From contig NC_083394.1 of assembly GCF_030864355.1 (NCBI RefSeq), positions 1,488,001 to 1,552,000 of the forward strand: a DNA stretch of 64,000 nucleotides, given 5' to 3'. The position numbers were made by a program, and so were the translations under genes. The stretch is from Cutaneotrichosporon cavernicola. Its lineage: Eukaryota > Basidiomycota > Tremellomycetes > Trichosporonales > Trichosporonaceae. The notes below the pieces were generated by a model, which ran no database searches, was not told the DNA's origin, and was given only the letters and a program-made list of their open reading frames with translations. Positions 5,401 through 8,310 of this stretch are shown in pieces (the first letter of the stretch is position 1; each line of letters starts with the position of its first letter).

Positions 5401-8310
5401 GCGGGTTAACAAGCTCAGAGGCGGACCCACAATGTCGTCAAACAACTTGTCCAGGTCGCGGTCACCAAGCGCCTCAATGTCGGCCGCCTCTCGCCGCGCG
5501 GCCGTCCAGTCCATGAGCTCTGTTGGTGCGGGCGAATCCGAGCGTCCAGGAGTTCCAGGATCCCCGTTCGTTGCGTTGCCCCACATTCCAGACATCCGCG
5601 TGCGGTGAGCGCGCACACCTGCGGGGTCCTGCATGTCAGTCATGAATCTCAGGGTGACACACGTTGAAGCGGAAGACGTGGAAGTCGCCCAAGATAACGC
5701 GGAAGCCATGTAGGAGCTTGACGGGCTTGGTGGTCAGTGCAGCGCTTCTGAGTAACTTCTTACCGTGCCGGGTGGTACGCGCTTGCCATTGACCTGCAAT
5801 TGTCAGTGTCCCGTCTCAGATGGACATGGGTTACTGACGAAAGTACGGGCATCCTCACACGCCTCCAGCGTAACGTGGCCCTCAATGTTGATAAACCGGC
5901 AGTGATGGGACGTGATGTGCTCGCCTGAGAGCTTGATCTGGGTAGACGTGCTCTCCCGGTTGCCAACGACCGTGGTACCCGGCTTCAGCTGGTAGACGAG
6001 ACACTCGGACATGAGGGGGTCCTCATTAAGGTTGACAAGTGATGGGAACTTTTGGGGTGCGTGGACGCCGACCATGTCTTTATCGACGGTGATGCCCAGC
6101 TCCTCGAGTGCCTTCTCTCGTGCGACGTGGATTGCCTGTGTAGCGGCCATCTGCGTTGTCAGCTCGGGCCACGAAGGGTGTACTCGCCTTCTCCTCCCAC
6201 GTGAGATTGAGGTCCCCCATGAGCTTCTCGGATGCTTGCAACTGGTCTTGAAGCTCCAGTTTCGTGACCCGCTTGATCTCGCCATCCTTGGTCTGGTACG
6301 TGACAATCTGGTTTTCAGGAGGGATGGACGGGTCGTACGTGTCCTCAGATAGACCTCCAGCAGACACCGACAAGACCTTGCCGCGCAGCAGCTCAAGCTC
6401 CTCTTTGAGCTCGCTGGCAGGTCAGCTTGAAAGCAAAGCGTTCGCTCACCGGATAAGCTTGGCGTTGGGGTCCTCGTTGACGACTGCGTGAGTGCGAATA
6501 CGCTTAGCGGCGTCGGCATAGCGCAGTGTGCTGCGGGTCAGCCTGGTCAATAGCCTCGCTTACCTCAGCGTCTCGTCGTCTATGATACACGGTCAGTATC
6601 TGCAGTGTAAGTGAGTGTGGGGACTCACAGTCCGCCGGCCTGAGCGTCAGCACGATTGCACACGCACTTGCGACTCACGAGATGGCAGCAATCATGGCTG
6701 TCTTCGAGTTACCTCCCAGACTCTCCTTCAGGAGCCAGGTGAGGACCGAGTCACGGTAGGGCACAAACTCCTCCTTCTTCTTCCTACCCTTACCCTCGGA
6801 CGCATTGGCGAGGGCAGCAATGACCTTGCCCAGCGTGGTGAGCGACTTGTTGATGTTGGCGCCCTCCTTGAGACGCGTACCCTTGGGTCAACATGCCCGC
6901 ACAAGCCACTCACCGTCGCGCCGGTCGATGCTTGCCGTTCACTGCCGGCCAAGTCCACGAGCGAGATCTTGGACACCTTCTCACCGACCATCTTACTCTG
7001 TGGGTCCCGGCGCTTCTGGGTAAGCTGGGGCGTCAGCTCCGCACAGGCAGGAATCCCACGATAACAGTAAACACGGCATGCGAACGGGACGACGTCTCGT
7101 TCATGTTGGTCGAAGCGACAGTCCTGGCCTTCACGTCAGCCATGGCGGCCGGCAGCCACCTGCCTTATTGCCCTCGTCCATGAGCGTCATCATCTGAGCG
7201 TCGTTCTCGACGACCAGCTTGCTGAGGTCCTCAACGTACGGGCCGAGCGACGGGTGCTCGCGCACCTTGAGATTGCCCTTGTTCTTGGGATTCAGCAGGT
7301 CGCGCACCCTGACCTCAGCTCCAGTTCGGGTTTCACTCAACCGGCCTCCACTCACTTCTCATTGTAGATTTCGATGTACGACACCTCGACCGTGTAAGTC
7401 AAGTTTGGATCATTGCTGGCCTGCTGCTCAACACGACGGAACAGCTCCGAGGTCGAGAGCGGAATGATACCCTTGTCGCGCCCATCTGTGGACGTAAGCC
7501 TGTGCGGGGACCGAGCCGCGATTCAGAAGACGCACATCCCATCATCGAGTCTGAGCATGTCAGCGTGTGTGCGCGCAAATGGCTCGCGGGCAGTCCTGGC
7601 GCAAATTAACATGGTCGCAGCCATGGCCACGGCCTGCCCTGGCCCGCAGTCACTGCCTCCCACACTCACAACTCTTGCCACTGTGAGTGGTGATCAGTAC
7701 CTATCCAAAGAAGCGTGGCGACTGCGTGTGCGACGCCGAGACTCCCTTACCTTCCCGTCTGCCCGTCTGTCCATCAGCACTACCGTCCTATTGCACACAG
7801 CCTCGTGCGACCTGCGAACGCACATGCGAAGATACAAGTGTTAAAGCCTTCGAAACTGTGGTTGAGGAGCTCAACGCCGAGGTCATCGAACAGCGTCTGC
7901 TGGCTCGCATACCGGGGGTCATCCTTGGATGAGGCGGACCAGTACGACTTGTCTGTGGTTAGCTTGGCACAGTGTGGGGACCGGGCCGCAGTCGGGGCCG
8001 AGCTCACCAAAGGAGAACACCTGCGACTTCTTCTCGATCGCGCGCGCGCTCGTGGTCTGCACCTCTGGTGGATCGAGGATCGTCCGGTTCCCCTCCATGC
8101 GGATGAGGGACTTTGCCCCCCGCGCGATTTCTGGCTATCAGTACTCCGGTCTGAAATGCGCGCCGAGCCCGTAATCGGCGTGCATGGACCCACCGCGCGA
8201 GTTAAGTGGACGGCATCTGGGGCGTCAGCATCGAGATTCCCGGACCGGGTGGGGTTGGGGAAGGGTGCAGCATACCGTACTACGACCTTGATGTTTCCCC
8301 CGCCGGACAT
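2476..8310 (-). CDS. Kinesin-3 motor (Unc104/KIF1A type), 24 exons, 1556 aa
   Basis: Plus-end-directed microtubule motor that carries vesicles and endosomes in fungi. The start MSGGGNIKVVVRCRPLNSR is the classic kinesin-3 N-terminus. Joined exons: 8276-8310, 8194-8216, 8008-8130, 7824-7952, 7751-7766, 7670-7680, 7536-7550, 7356-7485, 7164-7308, 7060-7128, 6914-7024, 6679-6881, 6629-6639, 6564-6579, 6450-6530, 6188-6413, 5839-6150, 5764-5793, 5663-5725, 5431-5628, 4890-5398, 2941-4851, 2709-2895, 2476-2592. Motor about residues 1-360: P-loop GQTGSGKS 105-112, switch I NETSSRSH near 219-226, switch II VDLAGSER near 255-262. An FHA domain lies at about 490-583. The long middle would hold the KIF1B and DUF3694 regions (by family length). 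The C-terminal PH domain is at about 1456-1550, with INLSQA and FTVYTPTNSY motifs. Two introns (7129-7163 and 6151-6187) use GC-AG. Very confident of family. Confidence 0.95.

What the first reader, a model, noticed from the sequence alone, without database searches (positions are those of the whole stretch)
7485..7952. Kinesin-3 P-loop encoded across five exons, three of them 16, 11 and 15 nt
Seen directly: exon 7824-7952 ends in the first base of the Tyr codon; microexons 7751-7766 (16 nt), 7670-7680 (11 nt) and 7536-7550 (15 nt) follow; then exon 7356-7485. Joined, they read YGQTGSGKSYSMMGYGRD with no frame error, and any other joining loses the Walker A motif. The ATP site therefore depends on correct inclusion of three tiny exons. 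Skipping any one gives a frameshift or a dead motor (15 nt stays in frame but removes SMMG and neighbours), so this is a possible on/off splice switch for a motor.
Basis: partly seen in the sequence, partly recalled or inferred. Interest (0 to 1): 0.78.

Follow-up and report, generated by a model that had tools for sequence, protein, structure and literature searches.

The report
Kinesin ATP site built from microexons
In a yeast, the gene for a cargo-carrying motor protein encodes its ATP-binding loop in three exons of 11 to 16 bases; relatives appear to share the layout, and many public gene models have lost those pieces, so this looks like an old, normally always-spliced gene structure rather than an on/off switch.

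Summary
On the minus strand, exons 7952-7824, 7766-7751 (16 nt), 7680-7670 (11 nt), 7550-7536 (15 nt) and 7485-7356 spell FAYGQTGSGKSYSMMGYG. It is the only GT-AG joining (introns of 20 nt or more) that does so; it scores 393 against at most 340 in 300 shuffles. The gene is a full kinesin-3 (Unc104/KIF1A type): 25 exons, 1544 aa, most likely Cutaneotrichosporon cavernicola. A second microexon pair (11 + 16 nt) encodes SPADYDETL.

New here: public kinesin-3 models of Tremellomycetes are broken at these microexons (16 of 26 proteins; 43 of 127 microexon cells against 5 of 358 control cells). Several deletions are flush with the predicted junctions. A few Agaricomycete models break there too. The layout looks ancient and often missed by annotation; no relatives' DNA was available.

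The proposed on/off switch is unsupported. Skipping the 16- or 11-nt exon alone truncates the protein; the in-frame skips (15; 16+11; all three) remove motor residues. Splice sites are ordinary. The public C. cavernicola model includes all five microexons. Best reading: a conserved, constitutive microexon cluster. No RNA was examined, so regulated skipping remains open.

The parts
2476..8310 (-). kinesin-3 (Unc104/KIF1A-type) gene, ATG at 8310, stop at 2476; 25 exons, 1544 aa (corrected model)
   Evidence: spliced alignments and junction reading; Pfam Kinesin, Kinesin_assoc, Microtub_bd, FHA, DUF3694, PH on the 1556-aa earlier version of the model; kinesin-3/KIF1A best solved relatives of the motor part
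8194..8216 (-). exon 2, 23 nt, encodes RCRPLNSR with its shared codons
7824..7952 (-). exon 4, ends in first base of the P-loop Tyr codon
7751..7766 (-). microexon 5, 16 nt, phase 1 to 2, YGQTG
7670..7680 (-). microexon 6, 11 nt, phase 2 to 1, SGKS (Walker A lysine)
7536..7550 (-). microexon 7, 15 nt, phase 1 to 1, YSMMG
7356..7485 (-). exon 8, begins YGRDKGIIPL
7767..7823 (-). intron 4, 57 nt, GTGCGT..CTGAT..CAG; retention gives an early stop
7681..7750 (-). intron 5, 70 nt, GTAAGG..CTGAT..CAG
7551..7669 (-). intron 6, 119 nt, GTGAGT..CTGAC..CAG
7486..7535 (-). intron 7, 50 nt, GTGCGT..CTTAC..CAG
6629..6639 (-). microexon 13, 11 nt, phase 2 to 1, SPAD
6564..6579 (-). microexon 14, 16 nt, phase 1 to 2, YDETL
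7129..7163 (-). intron 9, 35 nt, GC-AG, just upstream of the switch I exon (7128-7060)

Best explanation
The ATP-binding loop of a kinesin-3 (Unc104-type) gene of this Trichosporonales yeast (most likely Cutaneotrichosporon cavernicola) is encoded by a cluster of three constitutive microexons, with a second pair encoding SPADYDETL. Each short intron (50-119 nt here) has its own donor, branch point and acceptor and is probably recognised as a unit (intron definition, inferred), so an 11-nt exon can be kept. Because two sites 11-16 nt apart can hardly be occupied at once, the introns are probably removed one after another (inferred). All microexons must be included to make a motor. The layout is old: it is shared by Tremellomycetes and at least partly by Agaricomycetes (inferred from where public gene models break), and it is commonly missed by gene predictors, which explains public kinesin-3 models that lack a P-loop. 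Shown: the junctions as the unique reading, frame, skip consequences and breakage pattern. Inferred: constitutive inclusion, order of splicing, age.
For: Unique solution; far above shuffles; complete open gene model with branch-point-like motifs in each intron scored. Breakage of public orthologs: E5 9/25, E6 10/25, E7 7/25, E13 8/26, E14 9/26 in Tremellomycetes versus 1, 1, 2, 0, 0 of 94 others; 14 control segments broken in 5 of 358 Tremellomycete cells and 1 of 1316 others (the last total being 14 x 94; tests). Flush deletions: P0126 and P0131 lack YGQTGSGKS, P0129 lacks YSMMG, P0131, P0135, P0136, P0140, P0142 lack SPADYDETL, as does P0001. P0127, P0133 and P0134 read FACE.. at the same donor position, as intron translation would. 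C. cavernicola model P0121 includes all five microexons; genes of that species were predicted with RNA-seq hints (PMC10568926, passages). P0128: 1558 aa on a contig of at most 5,070 nt, hence apparently intron-free and probably cDNA, has all five peptides, with E for D in the last. Single skips of the 16- or 11-nt exon truncate the protein.
Against: No RNA reads were examined. No DNA of any relative was available, so intron positions of relatives are inferred from protein models, which are related to one another and probably share annotators (rows are not independent). Ten of 26 Tremellomycete models are intact at both clusters. P0121, the model I lean on, is itself wrong at switch I despite RNA-seq hints. 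P0334 and P0059 (organism not named) start inside MMGYG without a break before YG, so intron 7 may be absent there. Donors of the four introns are at the 17th-40th percentile of 45 reference donors, i.e. slightly weak; the reference introns come from my own models and aligner, which favours consensus sites, so this comparison is partly circular.
Confidence: 0.82

Rival explanations
1. Regulated microexon switch: the cell skips the 16+11 nt pair, the 15 nt exon or all three in frame to make a motor without a working ATP site (a dominant negative or cargo adaptor), or skips a single exon to shut the gene off through truncation and decay.
For: 16+11, 15, 42 and 11+16 nt are all in frame and leave 1542-1551 aa of the 1556-aa model; public models with exactly these deletions exist (P0126, P0129, P0131; the 42-nt form in P0254); a microexon switch is reported for Xlr2 of Trichoderma virens (PMC11121469, abstract and passages).
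Against: No transcript evidence. The deletions vary between close relatives (K. europaea lacks 16+11, K. bestiolae lacks 15) and occur beside garbled models, as expected of annotation failure. The C. cavernicola model and the transcript-like P0128 include every microexon. Splice sites are ordinary.
Confidence: 0.08
2. The Tremellomycete public models are short because the residues are truly absent (dead-motor kinesins), and the layout here is private to this species.
For: Deletions are clean and in frame in several annotated proteins.
Against: Breakage is concentrated in the microexon segments (43 of 127 cells) and rare in 14 control segments (5 of 358). Models of related species are intact: 14 of 25 at the P-loop cluster.
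Confidence: 0.04
3. Sequencing or assembly error, or a pseudogene, creates the apparent split.
For: None found.
Against: Each of the four introns of the cluster has canonical GT-AG and a branch-point-like motif; the 1544-aa frame is open; the public protein P0121 reads the same P-loop.
Confidence: 0.01

Closest known systems
Conserved, misannotated plant microexons (PMC8831610; start of abstract in the listing and passages)
   Same: Very small exons (15 nt or less), evolutionarily conserved, crucial for the protein, often missed in annotations; an adjacent pair (5 + 12 nt) reported in a rice transcript
   Different: Plants; the terms kinesin and fungi do not occur in its main text; here the evidence is genomic and comparative, without RNA reads
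Small exons of Cryptococcus neoformans var. grubii (PMC3990503, section 9 read; passages)
   Same: Same class (Tremellomycetes, recalled), intron-rich genes (5.7 introns per gene), short introns (median 56 nt), exons down to 1 bp, hard for automatic annotation
   Different: A genome-wide statement; a kinesin-3 cluster is not described in the section read
Xlr2 microexon switch in Trichoderma virens (PMC11121469, abstract and passages)
   Same: Fungal microexon that completes an essential domain and was missing from the gene model
   Different: A transcription factor; long form in low glucose and short form in high glucose; one microexon; no such regulation shown here
Microexons in P450 genes of Phanerochaete chrysosporium (PMC1184071, passages)
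   Same: Basidiomycete genes with microexons of 2-10 codons and short introns
   Different: Different gene family; no catalytic motif cluster in the passages seen

Membership tests
Kinesin-3 (Unc104/KIF1A) | Kinesin motor domain most similar to KIF1A-type motors | tested here: met
   kinesin-3/KIF1A chains best (E 6e-80) for the first 232 residues; PF00225 370 bits
Kinesin-3 (Unc104/KIF1A) | FHA domain after the motor | tested here: met
   PF00498 residues 509-575 of the 1556-aa model
Kinesin-3 (Unc104/KIF1A) | C-terminal PH domain for cargo lipid binding (Unc104/KIF1A subgroup) | tested here: met
   PF00169 residues 1458-1551 of the 1556-aa model; lipid binding itself not testable
Kinesin-3 (Unc104/KIF1A) | Intact Walker A, switch I and switch II motifs in the spliced protein (motif names recalled) | tested here: met
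   GQTGSGKS, NETSSRSH, DLAGSE are in the model
Conserved constitutive microexons (plant type) | Exons of about 15 nt or less with canonical splice sites, in frame in the gene | tested here: met
   exons of 16, 11, 15, 11 and 16 nt (two are 1 nt over the plant paper's 15-nt limit for small microexons)
Conserved constitutive microexons (plant type) | Conserved position in related species | tested here: inconclusive
   inferred from public protein models only, no relatives' DNA
Conserved constitutive microexons (plant type) | Included in essentially all transcripts | not testable with these tools
   no RNA reads available
Switch-like microexon (Xlr2 or neuronal type) | Condition- or tissue-dependent inclusion | not testable with these tools
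   no RNA reads available; splice-site strength gives no clear sign

The most novel reading that the evidence does not exclude
The phase symmetry of the clusters (16+11, 15, 11+16, all in frame) is maintained because Tremellomycetes really make kinesin-3 isoforms lacking the P-loop (YGQTGSGKS) or SPADYDETL. Public models such as P0126 and P0131 would then be true isoforms: nucleotide-blind motors that bind cargo or dimerise but cannot walk, giving splice-level control of vesicle transport.
Probability: 0.06. Interest if true: 0.8.

Novelty: new member of a known kind. Interest (0 to 1): 0.42.

Why it matters
It is a clean natural example of a universal catalytic motif that exists only after exons of 16, 11 and 15 nt are joined, so it can test how the fungal spliceosome handles exons too short for both ends to be bound at once. 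It also shows that, among the Tremellomycete kinesin-3 models listed, 11 of 25 are broken at the ATP site and 10 of 26 at the SPADYDETL stretch, which would mislead anyone inferring dead or diverged motors from databases.

Tried and rejected
Looked for DNA of relatives: viral contigs gave no relative; genome contigs gave five loci on contigs of four bacterial MAGs, with 30-47% identity to the query, not close fungal orthologs by identity, not pursued. The window's genome has no relatives held. Metagenome scans were capped at 0 and not tried.

Considered microexons as commonplace in this genome: in draft motor models of the 8 other kinesin genes found (aligned with the kinesin-3 model as query, so small diverged exons could be missed) 1 of 20 internal exons is 16 nt or less (11 nt, N-terminal part of the kinesin-1-like gene L011, unverified), against 5 of 23 internal exons here. 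In 7 of the 8 an open frame reads G-x-T/S-x-x-G-K-S/T without interruption; in the drafts an intron nevertheless falls right after GK in L010 and L014, and in L009 just before ATGCGKT. So single introns at or near the P-loop are not rare in these genes; the microexons are. I have no genome-wide base rate.

Looked for weak splice sites as a sign of regulation: donors slightly below the median, acceptors and branch points ordinary. A short-fragment protein search for skipped transcripts listed 120 of 1762 matches; 2 of these 120 lack a Walker A pattern (P0254 Tulasnella, P0334 unnamed). In the 120 listed, 3 lack it (P0041, P0059, P0061). None of these five can be shown to be a transcript.

My first model kept a 36-nt stretch (4675-4640) as coding; P0121 and the ortholog consensus indicate that it is an intron, corrected (the 1556-aa version was used). 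My first query had one wrong residue at a junction (VIVTQ for VILTQ), corrected from then on. P0121 and my corrected model still differ in several blocks.

Literature searches for fungal, plant or kinesin microexons: (6, 17 and 35 found no paper). In the titles and abstract starts listed I saw no kinesin-3 P-loop microexon cluster; the library is open-licence papers only and most listed papers were not opened. One search looked for the species.

Full report
What was checked. The minus strand was read across 8310-2476 and aligned with a small spliced aligner (GT/GC-AG introns, codon scoring) to orthologous proteins. Enumerating every GT-AG joining with introns of 20 nt or more that spells the motif gives one solution. 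In 300 dinucleotide-preserving shuffles of the interval the best score is 340, against 393 for the real DNA.

The whole gene. The corrected model has 25 exons and 1544 aa, with kinesin motor, kinesin-associated, FHA, DUF3694 and PH domains (run on the earlier 1556-aa version). Five of 23 internal exons are 16 nt or less: 16, 11, 15 (P-loop) and 11, 16 (SPADYDETL, near the end of the motor); the second pair appears with P0003 as query but not with P0001, whose public sequence lacks those residues. Exon 2 is 23 nt. Introns are 32-119 nt; two use GC donors (introns 9 and 16).

Consequences of mis-splicing. Skipping the 16-nt exon alone leaves 109 aa, the 11-nt exon alone 132 aa. Skipping 15 nt, 16+11 nt or all three is in frame (1551, 1547, 1542 aa) but removes YSMMG, YGQTGSGKS or both. 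Skipping 16+15 or 11+15 truncates. Skipping the downstream pair 11+16 is in frame too. Retention of any one of introns 4-7 truncates the protein at 109-162 aa.

Relatives. Among the 120 best full-length orthologs, the first 26 rows are Tremellomycetes by name (class membership of the genera recalled), except P0128, which is unnamed and 72% identical to Tremella mesenterica. The other 94 are mostly Agaricomycetes by name (recalled), some unnamed. Broken segments: YGQTG 9 of 25, SGKS 10 of 25, YSMMG 7 of 25 (P0123 lacks the N-terminus and was set aside for these), SPAD 8 of 26, YDETL 9 of 26. In the other 94 the numbers are 1, 1, 2, 0, 0. Fourteen control segments in the same motor are broken in 5 of 358 Tremellomycete cells (three at switch I, next to the 35-nt GC-AG intron, and two in P0144) and 1 of 1316 other cells (Tremellomycete totals and tests). 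At least one microexon is broken in 16 of 26 models; 10 of 26 are clean at both clusters. Several deletions are flush with the predicted junctions: P0126 and P0131 lack nine residues YGQTGSGKS, P0129 lacks YSMMG, P0131, P0135, P0136, P0140 and P0142 lack SPADYDETL, as does P0001. Others read FACE.. right after the Ala-T donor position, as translation of an intron starting GTGAG would. The rows are related and probably partly annotated by the same groups, so the tests overstate independence.

Beyond Tremellomycetes. Three of the 94 others break in the P-loop cluster: P0214 Coniferiporia lacks GQTG, P0233 Lentinula has YGQTG then foreign residues then YG, P0237 Lactarius is garbled after GKSY, which is not flush with a junction. 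In the fragment lists, P0254 Tulasnella lacks exactly YGQTGSGKSYSMMG, P0041 Arthromyces starts as MCEG before SGKS, and P0061 Termitomyces is foreign up to the final G. These point to the same junctions in Agaricomycetes. Against this, P0334 and P0059 run MGYG / MMGYG without a break, so not every intron need be shared. No relatives' DNA was available to settle it.

Is it a switch? Nothing found supports regulated skipping. The four introns have ordinary acceptors and branch points and donors at the 17th-40th percentile of 45 reference donors (the references come from my own models and aligner, which favours consensus sites). P0121 contains all five microexons; the genes of that species were predicted with BRAKER and RNA-seq hints (passages of PMC10568926), and that P0121 comes from that annotation is my inference from its strain tag. 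P0121 is wrong at switch I all the same. P0128 (1558 aa on a contig of at most 5,070 nt, so apparently intron-free) contains all five peptides; that it is cDNA is my inference from its length. How the 11-nt exon is kept (intron definition, sequential removal) is inference from general knowledge of short fungal introns.

Place among known things. Small exons are known in this class: in Cryptococcus neoformans some are as small as 1 bp (PMC3990503, section 9 read). Conserved microexons missed by annotation are established in plants (PMC8831610, start of abstract and passages). A functional microexon switch in a fungus is reported for Trichoderma virens Xlr2 (PMC11121469, abstract and passages). 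The present case is a new and striking member of that kind: of the nine kinesin genes found in this genome it is the only one in which I found microexons across the P-loop. It is not a new kind of system.

Noticed in passing
window 7163-7129 (intron 9) and 7128-7060 (switch I exon): A 35-nt GC-AG intron precedes the switch I exon. The public C. cavernicola model P0121 has a frame-shifted stretch where NMNETSSRSHAVF belongs (it reads as if a GT 4 nt downstream was used and intron 10 retained); P0122 and P0146 also lack switch I.
   Followed up: partly
window 6187-6151 (intron 16): Second GC-AG intron in the same gene (GCGAGT donor, 37 nt); many introns of this gene are only 32-39 nt.
   Followed up: no
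window 4675-4640: A 36-nt in-frame intron inside what otherwise reads as one open exon; only the comparison with P0121 and the ortholog consensus revealed it.
   Followed up: yes
L011 about 1643-1653 of the reverse strand: Draft model of a kinesin-1-like gene suggests another 11-nt exon (VVC of NIKVVCRFRP); unverified.
   Followed up: no
L017-L021: Five contigs of four bacterial MAGs in the genome collection carry kinesin motor sequences (30-47% identity), probably eukaryotic contamination.
   Followed up: no
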